64,000 nucleotides of DNA, from assembly GCF_030704535.1 (NCBI RefSeq), contig NC_081822.1:36391001-36455000 (forward strand), given 5' to 3'. Below the pieces are notes generated by a model. That model was not told the DNA's origin. It saw only the letters and a program-made list of their open reading frames with translations, and did not search any database. The translations under genes were made by a program, and so were the position numbers. The stretch comes from Vitis vinifera (lineage: Eukaryota; Streptophyta; Magnoliopsida; Vitales; Vitaceae). Positions within the stretch are counted from its first letter, which is position 1. Every line of letters begins with the position of its first letter. Of this stretch, positions 9,845 through 53,221 are shown piece by piece.

Positions 9845-9976
9845 ATGTTTATACTCTCTGCATTGATCTCTCCATCCATTTGTCCTCAACTCATGATATT
9901 ATTCTCACCCTTGTCGTTAAAAGCCTACTCACTCTCTACAGTGTCCATCTCCATCTCAATTCGAAGAACCATAGCC

Positions 9977-18600: not shown

Positions 18601-18789
18601 TTAGTTGGTTTATTAAATGCTTTTATGAGTGTTTTCGATAATTTAATGCTATACATAGGCTGGCCATGTGCATTCATCTCTCCATGCTTTTGTCCTCAAC
18701 TCCTGATACTATATGTTATCAACCTCGGTGTTAAAAGCCACCTACTCTCTATAGTCTCCACCTCCATCTCAATTCGAAGAAGCATAGCC

Positions 18790-20565
18790 ATGGTGAAGTA
18801 CCTAGGGAACCCGCATTCCCTTTTCATAATAACCTTCATAGCTTTTGTTGTCCCTTGCTTTTGTGATCCCACTGACATCATTTCGTCTTGCTTAATCCGG
18901 CACAATGTTTATAACTTCACGTTATTGCCTCACAACGGAAGCCAGTCTCCAGATTACTATAGGCTCCTCAACTTTTCCCTTCAGAATCTGCGGTATGCTG
19001 TCCCCACTGCTCCAAAACCAGTTGCTATTGCTATACCACAGAGTCTAAAGCAACTAGTGAACAGTATGCGGTGTTGTAGGGAAGGATGGTATGAGTTTAG
19101 AGTAAGGTGCGGTGGACACAGCTATGAAGGGATTTCTTCGGTTGTTCCGGATGGAAATCCATTTGTTATCATTGATATGATGAGTCTAAACCAGGTTTCG
19201 GTTGATGTAAGGTGCGGTGGACACAGCTATGAAGGGATTTCTTCGGTTGTTCCGGATGGAAATCCATTTGTTATCATTGATATGATGAGTCTAAACCAGG
19301 TTTCGGTTGATGTGGAGTCTGAAACAGCATGGGTTGAAGGGGGAGCAACACTTGGTGAGACGTACTATGCAGTTGCAGAGGCGAGCAATGTGCATGGATT
19401 CTCAGCCGGGTCATGCCCAACTGTTGGTGTTGGCGGCCACATTGCGGGGGGTGGATTCGGGCTGTTGTCGAGAAAATATGGTCTTGCAGCTGACAATGTG
19501 GTGGATGCGCTTCTCATTGATGCAGACGGACGCGTACTAGACCGGAAAGCCATGGGAGAAGATGTGTTCTGGGCGATTCGAGGAGGAGGGGGCGGTGATT
19601 GGGGGATTGTCTATGCATGGAAGATCAAGTTGTTGAAAGTACCTGAAACTGTAACATCCTGTATAATGTCGAGAACTAGGACCAAGCTCCATGTAGCTGA
19701 GCTAGTCCACAAGTGGCAATTCATCGCACCCAGGTTAGAACCTTCATTTTATCTCTCAGTTTTTGTTGGTGCTGGTTTACAGGGAGTTGATGAAGAAACT
19801 GGGGTATCAGCTTCATTCAAAGGGTTCTATCTGGGTTCAAGGAACGAAGCCATGTCAATCCTGAACCGGGTTTTCCCAGAGCTGGGAGTTGAGAAAGAAG
19901 ATTGCAGAGAAATGAGTTGGATTGAATCCATCCTCTACTTCAGTGGCTTGCCTAATGGAAGCTCCATCTCTGAGCTGAGAAACCGATACCTGGAAGACAA
20001 ACTATACTTCAAGGCTAAATCAGACTACGTGAGGACCCCAATTTCCATGGAAGGCCTGGTGACGGCCTTGGACATTCTTGAGATGGAGCCGAAAGGGTCC
20101 GTTGTCTTGGACCCATATGGAGGAGAAATGGAGAAGATAAGCAGTGATGCCCTACCTTTTCCTCACAGAAAAGGCAACCTGTTCTCAATTCAGTATATGG
20201 TGGCCTGGGAAGAAGACAGCACTGCTATGAGCAACAAGTACATAGATTGGATAAGAGGATTCTACAAGTGGATGATGCCGTATGTTTCACAGGGTCCAAG
20301 GGCTGCTTATGTTAACTACATGGACCTTGATTTAGGACAGATGAATAGCAGCATTTCATCTAATGATCCTGTGGAGGCTGCCAGGGATTGGGGTGAGAAG
20401 TATTTCTTGAACAACTATGATAGGTTGGTGAAAGTGAAGACATGCATTGATCCGGACAATGTGTTCAATAATCAACAGGGCATTCCTCCAATGCCCACAG
20501 CCAGGTTAAATAATAGAAGTGAGGGGCTCGGAGTAAGCGAAAGATGCATGGTTGTAAGTTACTGA
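18790..20565 (+). CDS. Berberine bridge enzyme-like FAD oxidase, copy 2, with internal duplication
   Basis: A single exon encodes 591 residues from the ATG at 18790, which aligns with the start of copy 1 and opens a signal peptide. It is closely similar to copy 1 along its length. Residues ~105-139 are repeated exactly at ~140-174, so there are two RCGGHSYEG motifs (His110 and His145) before one [11 protein letters not shown] (Cys209). The motif [13 protein letters not shown] of copy 1 reads [13 protein letters not shown] here. The C-terminus runs 17-18 residues past the copy-1 stop, because a small indel shift near 20500 bypasses the old TGA. The duplicated piece lies in the FAD-binding core, so correct folding is doubtful. 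It could be a decaying gene with an open frame, a functional variant, or an assembly artefact. Confidence 0.85.
19102..19311 (+). repeat. Exact 105-bp direct tandem duplication inside the oxidase gene
   Basis: Copies at 19102-19206 and 19207-19311 are identical base for base as far as I can read, and 105 is divisible by three, so the frame stays open. Copy 1 of the gene has this segment once. Identity implies a very recent event or an assembly error. Confidence 0.92.
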
Positions 20566-23500: not shown

Positions 23501-23939
23501 TGTTTGGTTGCATAACGGGTCTCTACCTCTCTAGTTTAGTAATCTTATGATACATAATGAAAATGTTGTAGTGGGTACCATATATATAAATGAATTTCTT
23601 TCAATCATGTATGCATATTTTGAAGTTTTGGAAGCCTTGGCCTAGGGTAAACAACATTTGACCTGGGAAATTCTTTTATATAGCTTAAGCTATCAATTTA
23701 ATCCAAAAACTTGAAAAGCTACCGGGTAATAGGCTACTCTTCCTCTTGTCCATGTTGTTTTTCCATGGAAACAAACAAATGCCTTCCACACTTTCCTAGA
23801 CATTGCAGAGATGACTATAAACCAAAGTCTTCACAATGAGACAACAGGCATGAAATGATTGATGGGCTCCTTATTTTCAAACTTCTACTCTTTTTTCAAC
23901 CAGAAATCTTATCCCAAAAGAAAGATCATCCTGAATTAG
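20566..23939. other. AT-rich intergenic DNA
   Basis: To about 20945 it still aligns with the 3' flank of copy 1. The rest is very AT-rich with an (ACCA)n run near 22080. No frame is supported by family similarity. Confidence 0.55.
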
Positions 23940-24960
23940 ATATTATATGCACCCTGCAATGATTCTTTCTTTGCCTCTTTTACTTTCCACTGGAACAAAC
24001 AAATGCTTTAACCTCCCCAGCTCCATGGCTAATTTTGATGTGACTCCACAGTTCACAAAAGTTCAAATAATCACGGAAAATTGGATTTCAGTGATCAATG
24101 AGATTCCACTATTTGCTTCAAATAATATATGTGGTACTTAAAAGTTAGAATGTGAATGATCACATAGAATAAAAGAAGAGAAAAAACAAAGGGGGAAAGA
24201 GGACCTCAGTTGCTCCCACAGAAAGGCTTAAGCTAAAGTTTAACTCCCTCATTTTAGGGTTGATGCAACTAGGAGTCGGACCACTAACAAAAAAAGGCCT
24301 AACAGGACATCAATTGTTCATTCTCTCCCTGTTCATCAATTTCCTCAAAGGATCTTATGTTCTTCAATTCCCTTAAAGGACCTTCTGAACTTCAATTACT
24401 TCAAAGGGCATCATGTTCTTCAGTTCCCTTAAAGGATGTCATGATATGAAAAGGAACAAGTTCTTCAATTTCCTCAAAGGATGGGTTAAAGGTTTCAGAT
24501 CAAGCAGGTTCCTGAAAATTCAAGAAAAACCACTGTCAAGAAAAAGGGTCCCCCAGAAAAGCTCCACTCCAGAGAAAAAGTGGTATGATTTTGCCCAAAA
24601 AGCAAAAGATTCAATGTCTAATAAAATATTAAATAGCTAGTGAAACTACAACCAATTGAAAGGTAATTCAACTTGGAGTGCTTTTCCCTAGTGGCTAGTG
24701 TATTTCGTATCACAGTGTGTATGGTTAGTCTTTTGTACTGTGTGGTCCCAGTGTGTAAATGTCTGTCTTCAAGGTTGTTGGTCTCCCTTTATCTATGTAA
24801 GTGCCCCTACATTTAACGAAGCTTCCCTATCATTCTAATTCTTTTCCTCTTAATTGTTTATATTCTCTGATTCTTATGTTTATGCTATGATGATTAATTG
24901 TTTGTTCTGTACTATCTCAGGGATACTGCACTATTTTGGCACCAGAGCCAAGGTTCAGGG
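23940..24960 (+). pseudogene. Relic duplicate of the movement-protein locus
   Basis: Upstream sequence (24095-24185), a ~60-bp coding piece (24256-24316) and the downstream region (24690-24925) each align in order with 25630-25720, 26261-26325 and 26745-27000 of the intact locus. The coding match covers the codons around GLVQLAVGPLTRQG but differs by substitutions and small gaps. The remaining coding part is absent and replaced by 28-bp repeats and a Lys-rich open frame (24413-24640) that I do not recognise. This is a decayed tandem copy of a virus-derived gene. Confidence 0.65.
24331..24487 (+). repeat. 28-bp tandem repeats in the relic locus
   Basis: Four head-to-tail copies of exactly 28 bases lie at 24331, 24359, 24387 and 24415, with core GTTCTTCAATTCCCTTAAAGG. 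A fifth starts at 24460 after a 17-base spacer. The period is not a multiple of three, so the repeats do not encode a regular peptide repeat. Confidence 0.85.
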
Positions 24961-25999
24961 AAGATTATTAGAGAGTAACTCTGTAACAGGATCACTCCAC
25001 CCCTTGATTCTGAATAATTGAACCAGAGATGGACAAGAGGGGAGTGTAGCACTATGAATAATCACATTTTCCCAATAACATATCCATGCTAGAAAGAAAG
25101 ACGACTGGTTTGAATTGGTTGATGCACTCACTCTTTTACACCATAATCTAAAAAATTGGCTTCAAATAATTGATGGATACTGTAAAAGATGAAACATGAA
25201 TGTTGATAAGTTCCTTATTTGAATTGAAACCATAACTCTTCTTTTCCCATAGATTTTATCCCAAACAATTGATAATTCTAATTTAGATAGCATAAATTGC
25301 TCTCGTATTTATTTTTCATTGATGTAACGATCCACACCCAACTGTGTAGATATTGTCCACTCTAAGATTCAAAGGGATCCTCATGACTTTAAAATTCTAC
25401 ATGATTAAGAGGAGTCCATACATAAATAGTCCCAGTAACTTTCTTCCTTCTTCCTTATCCAATGTAAAATATTACAATTGAAACAAACAATGCTTTCACT
25501 ACTCTACAAACTCCAAGTAATCAGCTTTCTATGATATCCAGGTATTATACATCCAATAATGGCAGTCATTGAACGTCAACTTCCAGGACTAATTAACTTT
25601 TATCTTACCTCCACTACATGAGATATCATAGGGTTCCATTATTTTCTTCCAATAGTACATGGAACTATAGAAGTTAGGATATGGATGGATCATATTCAAC
25701 AAAGAGAAACGACAAACGTGGAAAAGAAAAGATTCCAAGTGCTTTCCAATACTTAATGTGCAAGGCAAAGACCATTTCCACTAGTCTCATATCATATTTA
25801 AGTTTCTCCTCTATCTTGACAAATGATTGTGTTGCAGACTAGAGCACTCTCCTCAGTATCTTTCTAAGCTTGCTTCTTCTTATATTTTCCTTCTCAATAA
25901 GGCAGTCAAGTTCCGGAAGAACCCTCCTGAGTGCAACCCCAAGTAGGTATTTTTCTATTATCTTTCTTATTTTCTTTCTAGTTACTGAGAATTTATTGG

Positions 26000-26689
26000 A
26001 TGGCATCCTTATTTAGTTGTAAGTCATCTTCTAGTAAAGTTGTTGTAGATAGTGAAGAATATAGGGTCAGTGTTGAGAAGAATTTGCACAATTGGAACAT
26101 CCCAAAAGAGAAAATCTACAAAACAGGATTCTTCAAATCCAACAAGTTAGTGAGAACTGAAAAACAAACAATGCCACTGTCCACTGGAGATCAAATTATA
26201 AGATTACTTCCACAAGAGCATTTATACCGATTCCAAGACGAGGATTGTTCCCTCCATGTAGGGTTGGTTCAACTAGCAGTTGGACCATTAACAAGGCAAG
26301 GTATTAATGGAACCTCAGTTGTTTTATGTCTCCAAGATAATAGGCATAGCAAGTTTGAAGACTCCTTGCTAGGAAAGCTTCAATTCAGTCTTTGTGATGG
26401 ACCCATATATTTTAACTGCTTCCCCAATTTTTTGGTGTCTCTAATGGATCGAAGAGTATTCGACTGCTTGAATTTAAGCATCAAAACAAATGGCTATAAT
26501 ATGGTACAAGGATCACTGCCGATAGCCCTTGAATTCCGTGTCGTTTACAAGATAATGAAAAAAACCCCAGCTGTGCCAAAAGCCTTGGCAGAATACCCAG
26601 GAGGAAGAGTCCTTTTAGAAGAAAAAATTGGAAGATCAAATGCTGTTTTTCCAGCATCAGTCAAGTGGAGCGAAGTCGAAGATGCATAG
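26000..26689 (+). CDS. Endogenous homologue of 30K-superfamily viral movement proteins
   Basis: An uninterrupted frame of 229 codons. The middle of the protein resembles the 30K movement-protein core: a beta-rich region with LCLQDNR (Asp113 in the position of the superfamily's conserved Asp), then DSLLG, GPIYFNCFPNFLVSL (134-148) and TNGYNM..GSLPIALEF. In viruses such proteins enlarge plasmodesmata for cell-to-cell spread; homologues integrated in plant genomes are known, many of them pararetroviral. No replicase, coat-protein or reverse-transcriptase frame lies next to it here. It sits in single-gene context between the oxidases and the cupins, with a 3' flank shared with its relic copy. An intact frame beside a decayed duplicate could mean selection or recent arrival. 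Alternative: a plant protein with chance likeness, which I consider unlikely. Confidence 0.72.
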   Translation: MASLFSCKSSSSKVVVDSEEYRVSVEKNLHNWNIPKEKIYKTGFFKSNKLVRTEKQTMPLSTGDQIIRLLPQEHLYRFQDEDCSLHVGLVQLAVGPLTRQGINGTSVVLCLQDNRHSKFEDSLLGKLQFSLCDGPIYFNCFPNFLVSLMDRRVFDCLNLSIKTNGYNMVQGSLPIALEFRVVYKIMKKTPAVPKALAEYPGGRVLLEEKIGRSNAVFPASVKWSEVEDA

Positions 26690-27009
26690 CAGTGGATGCT
26701 ACCAGCTGAAGTCCCTCAACTACTTTACCTCAAAGTGAGCCAGATAAATGTATTTCATATCAGTATGCATTGCACGGTTATACGTGTGTTTTGTCGTTAG
26801 TTTTCCTGGTGTGTGTATATGTATCTTCAAGAATGCTTTTCTCCCTTTATCTCTGTAAATGTCTCTATAAGTCTATAACTAATGAAGTTTGTCTGTTATT
26901 CCAACTCTTCTCCTCTTAGTTGTTTATCTTATCTGATTTATGTGTTTGTCATTGTGATGGCCAATCTATTTGTTTCATAGTATGTTCTGTACTGTTTGCA
27001 TCAGGGCCA

Positions 27010-28700
27010 AGGTTTAAGATTGCTATAGATCTGACAATACCTGTGTTGTACTGAGCTCTCTAGTTCCGGTTTTGGTTTCTAATTGGCACTTCTTAGAGCT
27101 GGTGGACAGCAATGGGGTTTCTTATGGCAAATTCACTCGGATCATTTGGTTGGACGCCCACTAGTGATGACAATACTTAGGAAGTCAGAATGCATTATAT
27201 ATCCCAAAGGGTTCTGGTTTATGATTCTTCCAAGAAAAGATTGAATCTGTCAGTGGTTATGCCGTAAATAAATAAAACATATTTGTTATTGAAATCCATG
27301 ACAGTTTCCTATGATTATACACTAATATGATTGGGGAACAAACATGTCCGGAAAAAGTAGCAGTTAGGCCTTTAAGTTTAACCAAGGCTGGTTTGAACAA
27401 CTTCTGCTATTGTGTACGAGGCATTGTAGAAGCTAGCCTTTTTGAATCTCACTAACAGGTCTGGGAATCCTATAGGTTCTCAGTCTCATCTGAAGATCCA
27501 AGGATTCAATATTAAACCAGGATCACATATATGCCAACTTTTTTTTTTTTTGCTGGAATTGAAGTGGAAACCTATTGATGAATGCTGTAAGTTTTCCGGT
27601 TTTGGAGGATGGATGATGTCCTGCTCTTGGGAAAGACTTGAGGAGACTTTGGAAAGACTTTGATCTTTACTATTTTGGAAAGAACTTTGATATATAAAAA
27701 CAAAAGTTTAGGTATTGTTTGGTAAGTGTTTTTTAAAATAACTCTAAAAAATAGTTTTTAAAAACAGTTTTTAAAAATTGTTTTGTTTTGTAAAATAAAA
27801 GTTTATTTGAAAACCTAAAATGTTTTTAACTTGTTTTTAATATTTTTAAATATATTTTAAAAATAACTTTTACATTCACAACTTTATTTTTAATTATTAT
27901 ATATGTGTATTATTATTTTTTAAAACAATTCTCAAAAAACAAGTAAAAACAACTAAAAGACATTAGCTGAAAACATCATATTTTTTGTTTTAAGAACTGA
28001 AAACAAAAAATAGTTTTTGATTGTCAAATATATTTTCTAGTTTTCTTGTTTTAGAAAATAAAAATTTGTTCTTGAAAATAGTTGCTAAATAGACCCTTAA
28101 AGCCTCTTTTTGGAAGTTGTTCTTGACAACCGTTTTTTGTCCTCAAATAAAAATAGTTTTCTAAAGTAGAATACATATTTGAAAAGCTTTTGATAATTTT
28201 TTTTTTTTTAAGAATTTACCCTAAAAATACCTTTTTTTTTTTGAAAGAACTCAGGTAATTTCAGTTTATTTTTAAAATAGGAAGAATATTTTAACTTTTA
28301 ACTGTACATAAATGTGCAGTACCTTTATGGAGAATAAGCTGAGAAAATTGCAATTCATATTTAAGTTGAATTTTATTCTTGAAAATCATTAAAAATTATT
28401 TTTAAGAATAGTTATCCCAAACTATTTTTTGGAAACTATTGGAAAAAACATAGCCAAAAAAAGCTCTAAGTGCATTTTTTGATCATATATTTTTCTTCCT
28501 TTTTTTTTTCAATGAATAAATGTTTTATAACACTACATAAATTACATAAAATGCTAAGGACCCTAGAGGAATAGTATACTCAGGACTAGAATGATTTTGC
28601 CACAAGAAAAATGGCACTGTGTCAATCCCTACCCAAAAATGCCCTAGGACCTTCCAAGACATTCTGATGATAAAATCTGCCAAACTCTCAGACAATGGAC
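27010..28700. other. Intergenic region with AT-rich MITE-like DNA
   Basis: 27010-27700 shows no recognisable gene. 27707-28097 and 28098-28455 are adjoining AT-rich non-coding blocks, described separately. 28460-28700 is unremarkable. Confidence 0.5.
27707..28455. mobile_element. Two adjoining MITE-like AT-rich elements
   Basis: The first block begins TTTAGGTATTGTTTGG and ends with an imperfect inverted match (CTAAATAGACCCTTAAA). The second, from about 28098, shares an interior with the element at 6850-7254: GGAGAATAAGCTGAGAAAAT followed by TTTTATTC and AATTATTTTTAAGAAT. Both are non-coding. Ends are approximate and no target duplication is clear. Confidence 0.45.
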
Positions 28701-28960
28701 CAAAATTGACTTGATAAAATCATGTACACAAAAAATAAAAAAATAAAAAAAAAACCCAGAATTGGCTTCAAAATATTGTTGGACACTGGAAAAGATGAGA
28801 AATGAATGGATCACAATAAATACCAGAGCAAAAGACCCAATAAACTCAATGATCTCTTTTAGTTTAAAAGATATGACCCACTTAATATGAAGGCATAATT
28901 AACTATATTCATAAAAAAATTCCCAGGAGCAGCGTAGAGAGGAGACCTCAAAATTCAGCA

Positions 28961-29595
28961 ATGGCATGTTTGGGTTCAGTCAACCAGTCTGTGGTAGCAC
29001 TCTCTAATAAGTTCCACAACACCAACACCCAAAGCCTCCCAACCAAACACCTGTCTTCTTTATCATTATTTAGTGGTTCTTCTTCTCCCTTATCAACAAA
29101 ATCACCCAAAACCTACAAGCCAACTTACAGAGTCAACACTGGGATTGTGAGGGCAGAAGCTATGACAACTGAGAAGCTGGGCATCAAGATTGAGAGGAAT
29201 CCTCCTGAGTCCAGACTCACTCAACTGGGTGTCAAATCTTGGCCCAAGTATGTTTTCTGCTCTTTTTCTTCTTCTTTCTTCCATGGAAAAAATTGAGGAA
29301 AACAACAGAAAAAGTGGTGTATTCATGTGTTTATAAATGCTTTAGGGTTGTCGATGGGCTCATGTATGTGGGTTATTGAATATTGAACAGGTGGGGGTGT
29401 GAACCAAGCAAATTCCCATGGACGTTCACAACCAAAGAGACATGTTACCTACTGAAGGGCAAAGTGAAGGTATACCCAGATGGGGCTAATGAGTGTGTTG
29501 AGATTGGGGCTGGTGATTTGGTGGAGTTTCCCAAAGGAATGAGCTGCACTTGGGATGTCTCTGTTGCAGTGGACAAGCATTACAGCTTGGGCTAA
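28961..29595 (+). CDS. Small cupin (DUF861/Cupin_3-like), plastid-type N-terminus
   Basis: Two exons, 28961-29247 and 29391-29595, join in phase (CCCAA + GTGG gives PKWGC), for 163 residues. The C-terminal ~90 residues form a single cupin fold: KWGCEPSKFPWTF, ETCYLLKGKVKVYPDG, then EIGAGDLVEFPKGMSCTWDV. This matches the plant RmlC-like cupin group with DUF861. The first ~65 residues are Ser/Thr/Asn-rich with no acidic residue before about residue 66, typical of a chloroplast transit peptide, ending near a VRAEA-like cleavage area. The metal-ligand histidines of classical cupins are largely missing. Function is unknown. It is paralogous to the gene at 31574. Confidence 0.9.
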
Positions 29596-38888: not shown

Positions 38889-40860
38889 ATGACGATCACA
38901 TCAAAGAGCCCTTTGGTCGTGGCCTTTGGGGAAATGCTGATCGACTTCGTCCCCGACAGTGCCGGCGTTTCCCTGGCTGAGTCCACCGGATTCCTCAAAG
39001 CTCCCGGTGGCGCTCCGGCCAATGTGGCCTGCGCCATCACCAAGCTCGGGGGTAACTCCGCCTTTATCGGCAAGGTTGGTGATTTTTTCTTTTTTTTTAA
39101 AAATTTTTATCTGGAGGTGATGTGATGGAAAACGTGAGTTTGTCGTTTGGTGTTGCAGGTGGGAGATGATGAGTTTGGGCACATGCTGGTGGACATACTG
39201 AAGAAGAATGGGGTGAACAGTGAGGGAGTGTGCTTCGATGCGCATGCAAGGACGGCGCTGGCGTTCGTGACGCTGAAGAAGAATGGGGAGAGGGAGTTTA
39301 TGTTTTACAGGAACCCTAGCGCGGATATGCTGTTGACGGAATCTGAGCTGAACATGGGGCTGATCAAGCAGGCCAAGATCTTCCATTACGGATCCATAAG
39401 CTTGATATCGGAGCCATGCAGATCGGCTCATATGGCAGCCATGAAAGCAGCTAAGGAGGCCGGGATCTTGCTGTCGTATGACCCCAATGTCCGGTTGCCT
39501 CTCTGGCCGTCAGCTCAGGCCGCCATTGATGGCATCAAGAGCATCTGGAACCACGCTGATTTTATTAAGGTAGTGGGGTTTGTTGGAAAAAGAAACATGT
39601 ATTTTAGGGTATGTTTGTTTGCGGAGAGTTTATGGAAAGAAAGTAACAAGAAGATTAGAAAAAAGGAAGAATATTTGGGATCAAAACTCAAAAAGTCAAA
39701 ACATTCTCACTGTTACCTTCTTTAACTTAAATAAATATAAGATAGTTTGATGAAACTTGAAAGGGTTATTCTTTATTGAATTTTTAAATGGGGGAATATT
39801 TGATTATTTGTGAGAATACATTTTTTTAAGGATTTTTCCAAGAAAATTGAGAAAATTTTCTTTTTAACATTTTTTCACTTATTTCCATTTCCATTATTGA
39901 AGCCGGAGAAACTCATTCTAGGTGGCAAGTAAAACTTTGAGATCTGATGGGGTGTGTGTTGGTGGGGTGGGGTGAAAAGGGATGATTTTGACATGAAATT
40001 GATGGAGAAAATGATGACAGGTGAGTGATGATGAGGTGGGTTTCTTGACACAAGGAGATGCAGAAAAGGAAGACGTGGTGCTGTCACTGTGGCATGACAA
40101 CCTCAAGCTGCTTGTGGTCACTGATGGTGAGAAGGGTTGCAGATACTTCACCAAGGTATATGTTACCAACTCATTCCAATCTTCATCATCTTTAATTTAG
40201 TCCTAATAGTCCTAAAATAAAAATGGTACATATGAACAGGGGTTCAAAGGGAGAGTGGAAGGCTTCTCAGTGCAAACAGTTGACACAACAGGGGCTGGTG
40301 ATGCTTTTGTGGGTGCTCTTTTGGTTTCCATTGCCCAAGACCCTTCCATATTTCAGGTTCCCTCCCTTCCATTTTTCTCTCTTTTTGAAAAATCAAACAT
40401 GCTTGGTACCATAAAAAACTGTTCCCTACCATAACAAGACTTTTCACAATTTTATTTTATTTTATTTTCTGAAAATAAGTTGTTTTTTAAGAACAAATTT
40501 CAGCAATTTATTCAGTTGAAATTCAGATATTTTTAGTTGTTTTTGATAGAACAATAATTGAAAAGATTAACAACTTTCAGAGGAATAAACAAAAAAAACT
40601 GTTTTCCATATTTGAAGTCCCAATAAAATTATGTCCAAAAAGTAACTGAGCGAAAATATTGGGAAATAGACAGTTATATTCTAGTTATGATGAGGGTAAT
40701 GTAAATGAACTGTGAAATGTAGGATGAGGGGAAACTGAAGGAGGCACTGAAATATGCTAATGCATGTGGAGCAATTTGCACAACTCAGAAAGGAGCAATA
40801 CCAGCACTCCCAACCAATTCAGATGCACTTGACCTTGTTAACAAATCCAAGGCCAAATAG
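38889..40860 (+). CDS. Fructokinase (pfkB family), cytosolic type
   Basis: Exons 38889-39074, 39159-39569, 40021-40155, 40240-40356 and 40723-40860 (stop TAG) are each in phase 0 and total 328 residues, the usual length for plant cytosolic fructokinases. It phosphorylates fructose at C6 with ATP, feeding sucrose-derived carbon into glycolysis. The first pfkB signature region ([16 protein letters not shown]) starts at residue 40. The second ([13 protein letters not shown]) is at 259-271 with the catalytic Asp265. [12 protein letters not shown] lies in exon 2. No transit peptide precedes [15 protein letters not shown]. Intron 4 contains AT-rich MITE-like sequence. It is transcribed towards CLPX, with stop codons about 960 bases apart. 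Confidence 0.95.
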
Positions 40861-41819: not shown

Positions 41820-44800
41820 TTACATGCTCATGGCTCTTGATGAGACCTCCGACTCGGCTTCCTGCAATTCCCCATCCCCTGCCTCGCCACCACTCTCCTG
41901 CAACAAACACAAACAAACATATACATATGACTCAACTCAACAAAGCATCAATCCCAACCACTGGGGGTCCGCTGAATCAACTGTTTTTAACCAAGAGATG
42001 CAATGTTGGTTTGTTATTTGTGATCCACCCATCACCACTTATATTTTCTCTGCACTTGAGACTTGTGAAGGGGATAAGAAAATAAACATAATATCATGTC
42101 CTTTTTTTTTTATAGACAAACAAGGCATGTATTAAGAAACGTCAAAAAGAGGAGGTACATCCTACATATACAGGCAGTAAAGAGCATCTAAGAAATTCAA
42201 AAGAGAGGGATTCTCCAAAACCAAGGACTCCTAGGACCACTCAAAAAGTGACAGAAAGAAGAGATCCTTCAAACTTTGGTTTGACAACTCTTCATCTTCG
42301 ATAGTCTTTTGGTTGCACTCTCTCCAAATGCACCAAAATAGGCAAATCAGAACCAATCACCAAATTGCTCCTCTTCTTCTCTAGCCCCTTAAGTTTCCAT
42401 TCTAAGATAAGATTTCTCACTGAAGCCGAGAACACCCAATTGAAACCGAAGATTGCTAACAACAAGATCCAAAACTCTTTTGTCTTATCACAATGAATCA
42501 AAATGAGAGCAGTTGATTCTTCACTAACTTTACAAAGGCTACATATGTTGACCATGGACCATCCCCTCCTCATTAATGTGTCTACAGTTGAGATATTCCC
42601 CTAAACAGTTGCCCAAGCAAAAAAAAAAAGCTAGATCTAAGAGAAGCACGGGATCTCCAAATCTCTTTGGTTGAGAATATTAAACTATTCTCAACCATTA
42701 GAGAATTATAAAATGACTTGACACTAAATTTTCCCCTTCCACTTTTAACGGAAAAATGTGCTCCAAAAAATGGGTCACTTCCTCTAACTCCCAATCTTGA
42801 AAGAGTCTTCTAACTTGTATCTCCCAATGACCACCTCTGCCCCCTTCCCTTTCCCATAAGTTTACTACTATAGCATTTTTATGGGATGTTATCCTGAAAA
42901 GAGTAGGGTAAACATCTTTCAACTTAGACTCCCCATTCCAACTGTCCCACCAAAATCTTGTGCGTCTACCATTTCCTATTTGGATATTAGTTCTCAAACT
43001 GAACTCTTCCCAACCTTTTCTAATATCTTTCCAAAGGCTTATTGCATAAGACTCTCTCACCCCTCTAGTAATCCAACCCCCCTCCACCTCCCAAAATATT
43101 CCAAGAATGATTTTCCTCCACAAACTCTCCCCCTCAAGGGGAAATCTCCATAACCATTTTCCTAGCAAGGCTCGATTAAGAGCCTCCAAACATCTTAGCC
43201 CTAACCCTCTATGCTTCTTATCCTTACAACATCCACCTAGTTTACCAAGTGGATCTTTCTCCTCCCTTCCGAATCTCCCCATGGGAAGTCCCTTTGAATT
43301 CTCTCCAATTTGATACTTACTTTTTTAGGAATCACAAATAGAGACATAAAATAGATAGGGAGGTCTCATAGAGTGCTCTTAATATCATGTACTGGGAAGC
43401 CTTCCTCACACACTTGATTACAAAAAGGCCATTAGTTTGTCTTACATAAATTATGTATTACCCCCTACGGCCCATGGGTGGATCTCTCCCTAAATGGACA
43501 TGCAAGTTGATGATTGTTCAATGGAAGTGGGTCATACAACACAATTCAGTGATATGAATGCACACAAAGGTGACTTGATCACCAAAGGCATATCTATAAT
43601 TGTTAACTTGTAAATCATGTTGTATATCTTGTATGGTATCATCTTCATATATCATGTTCTTAGACATAATGAAAAAATAAATAGAAACAAATGTGAATGT
43701 AATATACACGCACACATACATATTGGGAAAATGAAGTAAAGGTGAGTATCATATCTAATTTCATGAGTGATGGCAAGATCAAAAGGACTTAAAACAAAGG
43801 CATTCACCTATATCATAGATAAGAAAACATTGAAAACTAGATTTTTAACAAATTCAACTTCACATGAGTATGTGACATTTTAATGCATAGTTTCATGATA
43901 ATATCAACAAAACAAGCTGATAGAATTCTTAACTATGATTATTAGTACCACTTATCAAAAAAAAAAAAAAACTATGATTATTAGTACCAAGTTTCGATTA
44001 GCCAAATATACATGTATGCATCAACATGTGTCAAGTGTCTCACACAGTTTTAAAAGGTGTGCTAGCCCCAAGGGGCAACCACTCCCTAGTGATAGTGTCT
44101 TGCTTGCTAAGACATGCACCTTGTTGATGAAGTATGTCTTGCCTAGTTTACTTTTCCTTTTTAAACAATTTTATTCTTGAAATTTCTAGTTGAATATTGA
44201 AATTACATAATTTCATTACTTTGTTGTTGACTGTTTCTTTTAGATGTTTGGAATCTTAAATTTTATATTGATTGGATTAGCTTTTCGATCATGTTTTATA
44301 AAATTGATATGCATCACAAGTTGTATTTCAATTCACTCAGACGTGCACCTTTTGTTGTGTATTGCACCTAGGCTGTAACAGACTTTTGCTCTTAGATGTG
44401 CCTTACAGCCTTTTAAAACTATGGTGTGTCATCTTCAAATTTCTAAATATCCAAAATCTTGAAAAAAAAAATAAAAAATAAAAAATAAAAAAAATAATTG
44501 AAATAGAAAAACTTGTACTAAACAAAAACTTTCCATTCATATTCAAGATTAACATTCAAATCTTTCAAACAATCCCCAATACTAAGCACAAGAATAGATT
44601 TACTTAAGTCTCAATCTTTCATGTGTTCCCTACAAAACTCATGCTTACTTCTTCCTTTTTCTTTTATCATCTACTTCTAACTTTGAAGTACATTTTATAA
44701 CATTTAATCTAATAATTTTTTTAGAAACAACGTTTTCAAATTTGATTTTTATGAAGTTATTAAAAACAGTCAAAGGTACTTGTATAGTTGTATAGTTGAA

Positions 44801-49400: not shown

Positions 49401-52400
49401 GATTCAACTACAGGAACAGTTGTACTCAATCCAGGAAGGTGCAAGGGAAAAGGCTCCTTGACTCCATTCAGCTCAAAATTTTGAAATGAGCAACTCTAAT
49501 ATAATATTGCACGATATTATATTAGAACTCCCACCACATTTACCAGAAGTAACCCTAATATAAAGGCTCTCCAATGCATTGTATATCTCCCCATTCTAGA
49601 ACCACCACTAGATTCACCAGAAGTAACCCCAAAATATATCCCCTTCCTATGGATCAAAATACATCCTATTTTAACAATATAGCATCAAGGGACTTCTAAG
49701 AAAGACAAAAGAGTCTAAAAATCTATCCTCGCTAAATTAATTTCTAACTAAACAAATAGCAAGATAAACTGATTGAATTTATAAAGAAAAATCTGTAAGT
49801 GAAGAACATATAATTCCAAATATCAAGTAATTGAAACAAATGGGATTAATCGACACAAGAAAAATGCAGCTAAAGAGATGATGTGAAGTTCGCAAGAGGT
49901 CCAGACAATCACTCTTGAAGGGTTGTGAATATCTGCAGTAAAAGTAATTCTGTCCAAGGGAATTATCTATGTTGCAGATAGAAGCATTACTTTGGGCAGC
50001 CTTCCTTTCTATTAGTAGAATAGGCAACAATGTTTAACTATTGCAGATCATCAAATGGAAATCCCACCCACAACATACACAAAGCTATGAGAACTCTGCA
50101 TATCCAACCTACATAGTTCAAAATATAAGAGCAAAAACTTCAAAGTAGCAAGTATTCACATGCAAAACATGGTGGACAAGATTCTAAAAAAATAATCATA
50201 CCGTAAGCAATTTATATAATATTGACTCAACATCTTCTCCAACATAACCAGCCTGCAAAAGAAACAGCATTCACCTCCTTCAATGCAACAACAAACCATA
50301 AAACAAAAGAAAATGAAATGTCTGAAGCAAGAAAATAGCAGCCATGGCTACTAATGAAAGCAAAGAATACTGATGAATTTTTTTTTCTTTTTTTGATAGG
50401 CACATAAAGGCATATTAATCAGTGCCAAGCCAAAAAATAAAAAGGGGGTGAGAGGAGGGGTGCACCCATGTACACTGGTAGCATACAAAGGGAACCACAA
50501 AGAGTATGAGCTTAAGAATAATGAGGAATAATACTCCTGTTGTTTTAGTTTTACAAAATTAAACATTAATGATCAAAAGAGCAAGTGAATACCATGTAGT
50601 GTGGCATTGGCAAGTTTTTCCTTCAACATTGGGATGCGCTTTTTTAGTGAAAGATACCAGATAGGTTAAGAACTGAAGAACACCCATTACCATTATGCCC
50701 ATTAAAAGCTAATGGAATTAAACCTTGATTTGGATGTTAAAAGTTAATATACAAAAATTGGCATGCAAACAGATATTAAAAATATATAAATTTTGTACAA
50801 TTTCAATAATAAGTGAAAAATAAAGTAACACTCACCTGTGTAAGGGTTGTTGCATCAGCAATGACAAAGGGCACATTCACAAAACGAGCAAGTGTTTTTG
50901 CAAGTAATGTTTTTCCTGTTTCAAGTTAATGTGCATTAGAATGGTGGTCTAAATTCAGCAGCCTCTTATCACACTAAGAAATAATGTAATAGATATCTTC
51001 AGATCTGAAGCTGCCAGTGTTCAATTTATGCCACAACTAAACTCAAATCATAAAATAGGGCCTATACCTGAGCCAGTTGGACCCATCAAGAGAACATTGC
51101 TCTTTTCCAGCTCCACAGAATCATCATCAACCTCTGATGTACCTGATTCTGCTCCTGACCTAGTAGTCAAATGCACAAGTTTAGTTTTATCCAAGGAACA
51201 AAAACCTGCAGCTTGAAAAGGTTACAACAAAATTTCCCAATTGTTACATATGTATTTCTTTTTTAGTAACAAGAGAAATATTAGCACAGAGCCTTCTTAT
51301 ATGATAGTGAGGTAAAAAAAATAAGATGAAAGAAATCCCATTAAGAACTAACCCTTTCTGCAAGGAGCCGTGATATATCCTTTTGTAGTGATTATATACA
51401 GCCACAGATAGCACCTACAACAGAAAGATAAACCAACCCCAACACAAGGCTTACTACAGATCCAAGATATGCTCAAAAATGGTCTTCCACATATAGGATA
51501 CTTCTCCCATTCTCAAATTAGTATATTGCACACTAGTAACTAGTTGATATGAAAATTATGTTTCTTGTGTCTGAAACATGTTAAGACCCCAACAAAAATG
51601 GCCCACCTCCCATGTCTGACACCAGTTTGAACGCTTAAAAGAGTGTCCCCATTTACCTATTTCAACAATGTAGACCTCTATCCCAGAGAACTATTAGAAT
51701 TTATCACTTCATTATTTAACTCCCTATGGTTCTTCCACTGTTCCAGATACACATAAAAACACATACCAATGTATATGTTATAACAAATTCACAAATATAC
51801 ACACATATAGTTGTTTCCCTGTATCTATATTTTCATGGAGTTTAACATGTCCGGCAACCAATGTCTCTCCTATCACAACACTCATGTCCATGTGCATATA
51901 CCATAGAAAACCATTATAACAAGGTAGTTCAGTCAAGAAACCTAGGAGCATTTAAAAGTTAAGGGACTGAAACAAAGATGGTTAGCAGGCTTTCCAAAAA
52001 CACACCTATCAAAAAGCCCAAAAGAAGATGTGAAATTGATATGAGCTACAATATTCCAGACATGAGTTATAAGAACCACTACAAAATGTATATGATGAGC
52101 AAAAAGATATATAACGACCCAATATACAATGACAATGGCAAGATTTGTTAAACACACAAAGTCTTTAGCATAATTCAGTATGACCCCAATAGCAGAGTTC
52201 AAAATGATTGTAAAGCGGGAAAAACCGACGAGAGGAGCATTAAGTTCCCTAAGAACCACCAAAAAGTCCGAAAATGGAATGAAATCTAACTAAATCATAT
52301 GCACAAACTGGTGGGGCATCAAAATTGACAGTAGTAATTGCATAACTCTTAAACCTTTTTGGCTCTTTCCTGCCCAATGACAAACTTGTCAAGTCCCTTG

Positions 52401-53221
52401 CAGATCTCCTTCGGCGTCGGCAAATCCTTCCCTAAATTCGACCCACCCCACCCATTCCTCTCCCCAAATGACCCATTTCCTCCACCACCACCACCATTAC
52501 CCCCTACACCAGGTCCGGCCGCCCGAATCACATTAACTCCAGGAGCAAATGGCGGCCCCGGCGGTGCATGCACTGCCAGCCCATTTCCCGACGGCGGAGG
52601 CGGCGGAGGTGGCCAATTCTCCGGCGGGTCGCCTCCATAGGACCTCAAAGTCTCCCAAAACGACATCCTGAGCCTGCTCCCATAGTCTTCCTCATGACCA
52701 CCACCGTTTTTGCTGCTCTTCTTCTCGTTATCCTTTCCTTTTGGATGATTCGTATTTGTATTGTTGTAATCGGACCTACCAATCTCCACGAAACTCCCCT
52801 GAAGTGGGGCAATCTTGTAGGGCCTGAAATAGTAAGCGGTTTTGCAATTAGGGCAAAGATTAACCGCCTGATAACTCCCGCCACTTCCCTTGGAATTGGA
52901 ACTATCAGTGGGAACGGCAGGTGAGAAATTGGATGGAAAGTGACGATTAGAGAAGAGGAGATCCATGACTTTTGAGCATCTAGGGCAATTGGCTTCTGCC
53001 CTAATCTTCCGCGTCTGGAAACCGTCGGAGCCGCCGTGGTCCCACTTGTACCTCTCCTGAACTCCGATCAGCGACTCCCGCCGGCGGTGGGAACCCATAT
53101 GCAGGCAGTTCGCGAACCGGGTCGAGATGGGCGACTTCTGCATGAACCGGTGGTTACACCTACCCACCATCAACAACCGCTCCACCACCTCTCTCTTCCC
53201 TCTCAATACTCCACCAGCCAT
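41820..53221 (-). CDS. ATP-dependent Clp protease ATP-binding subunit CLPX, mitochondrial type
   Basis: Fifteen exons on the - strand: 53221-52355, 51414-51353, 51159-51068, 50915-50836, 50252-50202, 49252-49178, 49082-49005, 48163-48107, 46578-46508, 46305-46206, 45928-45824, 45477-45415, 45312-45190, 45076-44918 and 41897-41820. All keep phase and give 686 residues. CLPX unfolds substrates and feeds them to ClpP. Visible parts: an Arg-rich N-terminus with little acid (mitochondrial presequence); a CPRC...CPNC zinc-type pair at 79-82 and 123-126; a Pro/Gly-rich linker; Walker A GPTGSGKT (336-343); pore loop GYVG (369-372); Walker B VYIDEVD (398-404); the ClpP-docking IGF loop (484-486); and sensor-2 GAR (590-592). 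An in-frame ATG at 53293 would add 24 residues and seems less likely. The last intron is 3 kb because of a LINE insertion. Confidence 0.95.
42089..42099. repeat. Target-site duplication TAATATCATGT, left copy
   Basis: Eleven bases repeated exactly at 43380-43390, on the two sides of the LINE. Confidence 0.85.
42100..43379 (-). mobile_element. 5'-truncated LINE (L1-like) in the last CLPX intron
   Basis: The insertion is bounded by an exact 11-bp duplication. It reads on the - strand and ends in an A tract, seen on + as a T run at 42102-42111. Broken frames at 43282-42698, 42794-42582 and 42573-42292 (-) give the region after the LINE reverse transcriptase (GGLGxR-like [17 protein letters not shown]) and then a zf-RVT-like CSLCK...H..C module. 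The 5' part, including the reverse transcriptase core, is missing. Its sense is the same as CLPX. Confidence 0.85.
43380..43390. repeat. Target-site duplication TAATATCATGT, right copy
   Basis: Exact partner of 42089-42099. Confidence 0.85.
46364..46452. repeat. (CT)n/(CA)n microsatellite in a CLPX intron
   Basis: A short CT run is followed by about 70 bases of imperfect CA repeats, within the intron between exons 9 and 10. It is likely polymorphic. Confidence 0.9.
50363..50529 (-). mobile_element. LINE 3'-end fragment in a CLPX intron
   Basis: A ~135-bp insert (50379-50513) sits between AAGAATACTGATGAAT and AAGAATAATGAGGAAT, a 16-bp duplication with two mismatches. The left end is a T-rich run followed by GATAGGCACATAAAGGCAT, close to the start of the 42100 LINE on + (ATAGACAAACAAGGCAT). 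It is therefore a very short 5'-truncated copy, or a SINE sharing that tail, on the - strand. Confidence 0.6.

What the first reader, a model, noticed from the sequence alone, without database searches (positions are those of the whole stretch)
26000..26689. Intact 30K-type movement-protein homologue as a stand-alone plant gene
An unbroken 229-codon frame carries the core features of the plant-virus 30K movement superfamily (the conserved Asp at 113, GPIYFNCFPNFLVSL, GYNM..GSLPIAL), yet no viral neighbour genes flank it. An intact frame beside a decayed duplicate suggests possible domestication of a viral gene for plasmodesmatal biology or virus interference. Recent integration is the plain alternative.
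Basis: partly seen in the sequence, partly recalled or inferred. Interest (0 to 1): 0.8.

Follow-up and report, generated by a model that had tools for sequence, protein, structure and literature searches.

The report
Likely domesticated plant-virus movement protein gene
A grape-like plant carries one intact, stand-alone copy of a virus movement-protein gene that related species keep with the same ends and, in one of them, on what looks like the matching chromosome, so it is probably a viral gene the plant has taken over.

Summary
Window 26000-26689 (+) is an unbroken 229-codon frame matching Pfam MP (64.3 bits, cut-off 23). Among 150 scored matches in its own genome it is alone: the other 149 are at most 41% identical and many sit in long florendovirus-like frames. 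No capsid or polymerase remnant was found beside it. A decayed tandem copy lies upstream. Four relatives (94, 73, 72, 67% identical) form one clade with it (100/99). All five proteins have 228-233 residues, end at the same place, and share a one-residue insertion and changes at sites that viral relatives conserve. One relative (P0006) is on a contig of 95,693,666 bases; the CLPX homologue found with the window's neighbouring gene is on a contig of exactly that length, so the locus is probably syntenic. The decayed copy's flank differs by about 0.33 changes per site; a neutral frame would rarely stay open that long. Recent integration is unlikely. Best reading: an old caulimovirid MP kept as a plant gene. 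Expression, dN/dS and function are untested. Intact endogenous MP genes are already known in plants; a stand-alone one with cross-species orthology evidence is the new part.

The parts
26000..26689 (+). Intact stand-alone movement-protein gene, 229 codons plus stop
24221..24328 (+). Decayed MP fragment of the upstream tandem copy
23849..23973 (+). Repeated block upstream of the decayed fragment, matches 25195-25321
24104..24198 (+). Repeated block, matches 25634-25724
24699..24974 (+). 3' flank of the decayed copy, matches 26749-27029; lies upstream of the intact gene
25195..25724 (+). Upstream region of the intact gene that holds the partners of two repeated blocks (25195-25321 and 25634-25724)
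26749..27029 (+). 3' flank of the intact gene, partner of 24699-24974; found nowhere else in the genome
24937..24948 (+). Weak match (2 of 12 mismatches) to the tRNA-Met primer-site motif of caulimovirids; a lead only
52349..53221 (-). CLPX first-exon frame, the neighbour used as synteny marker; not part of the element

Best explanation
This is a domesticated viral gene. A caulimovirid related to, but distinct from, the host's own florendoviruses integrated long ago. The stretch holding the movement-protein part of its first open frame was kept, with a stop right after the MP domain. In this genome the stretch was duplicated in tandem and one copy decayed. The intact copy has been kept as a plant gene while at least two, probably five, lineages diverged. 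It most likely makes a small jelly-roll protein with the 30K core, acting, as viral relatives do, on plasmodesmata or on RNA or protein cargo; the lineage has lost charged residues that viruses conserve (K95, R112, E128), so the viral activity was probably altered rather than kept whole. Shown: intact MP-family frame, single copy, clade, shared end and insertion, decayed tandem copy, contig shared with CLPX. Inferred: single origin, selection on the protein, expression, place of action.
For: MP family match. Only close copy among 150 scored of 641 candidates. Clade P0001, P0003-P0006 at 100/99, P0007 sister at 100/99. Same end and one-residue insertion in five of five, absent in P0007 and in the five other relatives aligned with them. 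Of 46 columns conserved in 41 non-clade MPs, 39 are invariant within the five, against 117 of 218 columns overall (hypergeometric 8.5e-7). P0006 and the CLPX homologue P0165 are listed on contigs of the same length, 95,693,666. Flank divergence from the decayed twin is 0.32-0.34, at which a neutral frame stays open in about 1-2% of simulations by substitutions alone (0.0185 at 0.15 and 0.0065 at 0.20 per lineage) and in 0 of 20,000 with indels added. The predicted fold matches viral MPs.
Against: No expression data and no codon-level dN/dS. Protein databases list open frames only, so broken relatives are not seen. Replacements are more conservative than neutral in only 1 of 4 comparisons at the 5% level (P0005, 0.003; P0004 0.057, P0006 0.068, P0003 0.42). 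The window gene has 9 derived changes against 3 in P0003, 2 unresolved, which could mean loosening. The MP fragment pair (0.32) is no less diverged than the flank pair (0.32-0.34), though on 84 sites only. The gene pair on one contig is chromosome-level evidence from one species.
Confidence: 0.72

Rival explanations
1. Old endogenous caulimovirid remnant without function: an inherited fossil whose frame happens to be open, with the other open copies seen only because databases list open frames.
For: Endogenous caulimovirids abound in this genome. Conservative-replacement test mostly not significant; faster change in the window's lineage.
Against: Five open frames with identical ends; per pair, a neutral frame would keep no stop in about 2-4% of simulations at 69-75% identity, and in 0 of 20,000 with indels at the divergence of the twin. 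The conserved core of the protein is spared.
Confidence: 0.17
2. Independent integrations of an unknown caulimovirid group that encodes a free-standing MP, in each host species separately; openness was kept by selection in the virus.
For: Some caulimovirids have a separate MP frame (general knowledge; BFVD lists stand-alone MPs, e.g. figwort mosaic virus). Only proteins of the relatives could be seen, not their flanks.
Against: No other copy above 41% identity in this genome, unlike the multi-copy endogenous families. P0006 shares a contig length with the CLPX neighbour. No viral neighbour genes here.
Confidence: 0.07
3. Recent integration of an exogenous virus fragment.
For: The frame is intact and close to a viral family.
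Against: Old diverged tandem twin; relatives at 67-94% with the same ends; no close viral relative in IMG/VR.
Confidence: 0.02
4. The locus is kept as a source of small RNA against related viruses, not for its protein (the hypothesis of PMC2714080 for grape inserts in general).
For: Proposed in print for grape (PMC2714080; abstract and part 1 of 5 of the text read).
Against: Gives no reason for conserved ends and protein core; the resident florendovirus-like family is only about 40% identical in protein, leaving little shared sequence.
Confidence: 0.02

Closest known systems
Florendovirus ORF1 movement-protein domain (Caulimoviridae; endogenous in Vitis, PMC4241990)
   Same: MP at the start of the frame, similar N-terminal start (MSSIF.. 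against MASLF..), about 38-41% identity over nearly the whole gene.
   Different: Florendovirus ORF1 is a 205-216 kDa polyprotein, multi-copy; this is single-copy and ends after the MP domain. In the tree it is not within the resident florendovirus-like clade.
AtMP of Arabidopsis (caulimovirid-derived MP fused to At1g37113; Carrasco et al. 2019 as described in PMC10377300, section 17 read)
   Same: Caulimovirid MP retained as a plant gene; the only functional precedent found.
   Different: AtMP is a fusion transcript; this is a free-standing frame with likely orthologues in other species. No phenotype known here.
Endogenous 30K MP homologues of euphyllophytes (Mushegian and Elena 2015; not held; seen only as cited in PMC8346255 and PMC10377300)
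   Same: Intact MP homologues in plant genomes, many transcribed.
   Different: Cited for wide occurrence and positive selection at codons; whether this gene or its relatives are among them could not be checked.

Membership tests
30K movement-protein superfamily (PF01107) | Profile match above the curated cut-off | tested here: met
   64.3 bits against 23, residues 35-189 on profile 13-179 of 191
30K movement-protein superfamily (PF01107) | Conserved aspartate in the core (motif recalled) | tested here: met
   D113 invariant in 47 of 47
30K movement-protein superfamily (PF01107) | Jelly-roll-like beta core | tested here: met
30K movement-protein superfamily (PF01107) | Moves nucleic acid through plasmodesmata | not testable with these tools
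   No functional data
Florendovirus (as a virus or provirus) | MP fused to capsid, protease, RT and RNase H in ORF1 | tested here: not met
   Stop after the MP domain; no such remnant found near by
Florendovirus (as a virus or provirus) | MP groups with florendovirus MPs | tested here: inconclusive
   Clusters apart from the resident florendovirus-like clade; deep branches weakly resolved, root arbitrary
Domesticated viral gene | Orthologue at the corresponding place in another species | tested here: inconclusive
   P0006 and CLPX homologue P0165 on contigs of identical length, 95,693,666: same chromosome, interval not seen
Domesticated viral gene | Frame kept longer than neutral decay allows | tested here: met
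   Neutral simulations against the decayed twin and between relatives; assumes the twins were identical when formed in the host
Domesticated viral gene | Purifying selection by dN/dS | not testable with these tools
   Only proteins of the relatives were available; a substitute test was significant in 1 of 4 comparisons
Domesticated viral gene | Expression and host phenotype | not testable with these tools
   No RNA or phenotype data

The most novel reading that the evidence does not exclude
A plant-virus movement protein was captured as a free-standing plant gene before lineages of the grape family split, changed at otherwise conserved charged sites, and has since served the plant's own cell-to-cell traffic or its defence against virus movement: a stand-alone, orthologous domesticated 30K gene kept for tens of millions of years.
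Probability: 0.35. Interest if true: 0.85.

Novelty: new variant of a known kind. Interest (0 to 1): 0.62.

Why it matters
A 2023 review says there is currently little evidence that plants domesticated caulimovirid genes, and names AtMP as a main case (PMC10377300, section 17 read). For florendoviruses the orthologous dating it cites is 1.8 million years in Oryza, though conifer caulimovirids reach 75 million (passages). A free-standing MP gene with likely orthologues would make an open question, whether plants reuse viral plasmodesmata proteins, directly testable by gene removal and localisation.

Full report
What is there. The window lies in a 495.6-Mb genome of 21 contigs at C18:36391001-36455000. 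Size, contig number and florendovirus load suggest Vitis vinifera; that name is my inference and comes from no call. The frame at 26000-26689 is open for 229 codons and matches the viral movement-protein family PF01107. Its neighbours are ordinary plant genes: berberine-bridge-like oxidases at 9845 and 18625 and a PfkB kinase exon at 39183, a cupin at 28961 to about 29596 and a CLPX exon at 52349-53221.

Alone in its genome. A protein search scored 150 of 641 candidates. The window gene matched itself at 100%; the other 149 rows are 37-41% identical. Many lie in long open frames, up to 1783 aa, as expected for florendovirus ORF1 (205-216 kDa polyprotein; PMC4241990, passages). The window gene begins where that frame begins but stops after the MP domain. 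tblastn with 109 MP-bearing proteins, profiles and Pfam on nine open stretches showed no capsid or polymerase trace near by; I did not run a dedicated reverse-transcriptase profile over the region.

Relatives elsewhere. One search gave 13 proteins. P0002 (18 member sequences) differs from the window protein by one residue (228 of 229). P0003-P0006 are 94, 73, 72 and 67% identical, with 229, 233, 230 and 228 residues. The profile search gave 108 proteins; beyond P0007 (52%) identities are 32-56%, those above 48% covering only about half of the gene. In a tree of 85 proteins (72 of the 109 proteins: P0002 and those under 195 aa left out; 13 of the 20 loci) P0001 and P0003-P0006 form a clade (100/99) with P0007 as sister (100/99), apart from both resident endogenous groups. 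All five end W[S/T]EV, two residues, A, stop. P0007 and five further relatives have Pro at that place or read on, and lack the inserted residue G104. At sites conserved in 41 non-clade MPs the five carry K95 to G or A, L102I, R112Q, E128Q, I221V and P229A, while P0007 keeps the common residue. Change on the stem and conservation since then fits a shift of role followed by constraint; that is an inference.

Synteny. P0006 is listed on a contig of 95,693,666 bases (two contigs are counted for it, the longest shown). I searched with the CLPX exon, about 26 kb from the MP gene. Of 236 hits, 120 were listed; P0165 (123 of 154 residues identical) is listed on a contig of exactly that length. The two genes are thus on one chromosome-size contig in another species; by chance this would happen about once in the number of chromosomes. 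Its identity, 80%, is above that of every named plant among the 120 (best 69%), though over a different stretch, so a species of the grape family is likely but unnamed. Nothing of the kind could be tested for P0003, P0004 or P0005, and the interval itself was not seen.

The decayed twin. Four colinear blocks repeat upstream of the gene, each above the best of 300 shuffles. They include an MP fragment and the 3' flank. The flank pair differs by 0.32-0.34 changes per site, the MP pair by 0.32-0.33 and the block at 23849-23973 by 0.50-0.52 (the block at 24104 was not measured). The 3' flank had 2 matches in the genome, both in this locus (that search skips very common words). If half of 0.33 fell on the intact side, a neutral frame would survive in about 1-2% of simulations by substitutions alone (0.0185 at 0.15, 0.0065 at 0.20) and in 0 of 20,000 with indels at 0.1 per substitution. 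With recalled plant rates of 2.5-6.5e-9 per site and year, 0.33 means roughly 25-66 million years, a rough guide. All this assumes that the two copies were identical when formed in the host.

Results against. Replacements were more conservative than neutral in 1 of 4 comparisons at the 5% level. The window gene has 9 derived changes against 3 in P0003, with 2 unresolved. The MP fragment pair is no less diverged than the flank pair, on 84 sites. Databases list open frames only. There is no expression evidence; several relatives come from short assembled contigs that could be DNA or RNA.

Mechanism, with steps marked. Shown: a viral MP domain cut off at its end, intact here and conserved in relatives. 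Inferred: transcription from the duplicated upstream region; plasmodesmatal location; altered cargo binding because conserved basic residues K95 and R112 are gone. The functional precedent, AtMP, is reported to affect development, germination under salt and resistance to an RNA virus (PMC10377300, section 17). I put about one in three on a plasmodesmatal or virus-movement role; retention as a protein gene is more secure than the role.

Known or new. Endogenous MP homologues in almost all euphyllophytes, with transcripts, are reported by Mushegian and Elena 2015 as cited in PMC8346255 (passages; the original is not held). Grape MP-like inserts were noted and not analysed further in 2009 (PMC2714080, part 1 of 5). 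In the nine searches named I found no report of a stand-alone MP gene with orthology evidence across species; most subscription papers were out of reach.

Noticed in passing
G000:C17:149795-474675 (own genome, outside the window): 47 of the 150 scored MP matches lie in this stretch, many about 6.2 kb apart and in open frames of up to 1764 aa: a large florendovirus-like array near a contig end.
   Followed up: no
window 19102-19313: An exact 105-bp tandem duplication inside the oxidase-like frame 18625-20565 keeps the frame and repeats 35 residues.
   Followed up: no
window 25154-25202 and 28760-28808: A 49-base stretch upstream of the MP gene recurs at 86% identity upstream of the cupin gene; possibly a small mobile element or a shared promoter piece.
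   Followed up: no
window 42698-43282 (-): A 194-codon open frame that looks, by recall only, like part of a LINE-type reverse transcriptase protein.
   Followed up: no
window 24330-24436: Short 28-base tandem repeat (3.8 copies) directly after the decayed MP fragment.
   Followed up: no
protein P0007 (52% identical, 282 aa): The sister of the clade keeps the common viral residues and reads on past the clade's stop; it may be the nearest pre-domestication relative.
   Followed up: partly
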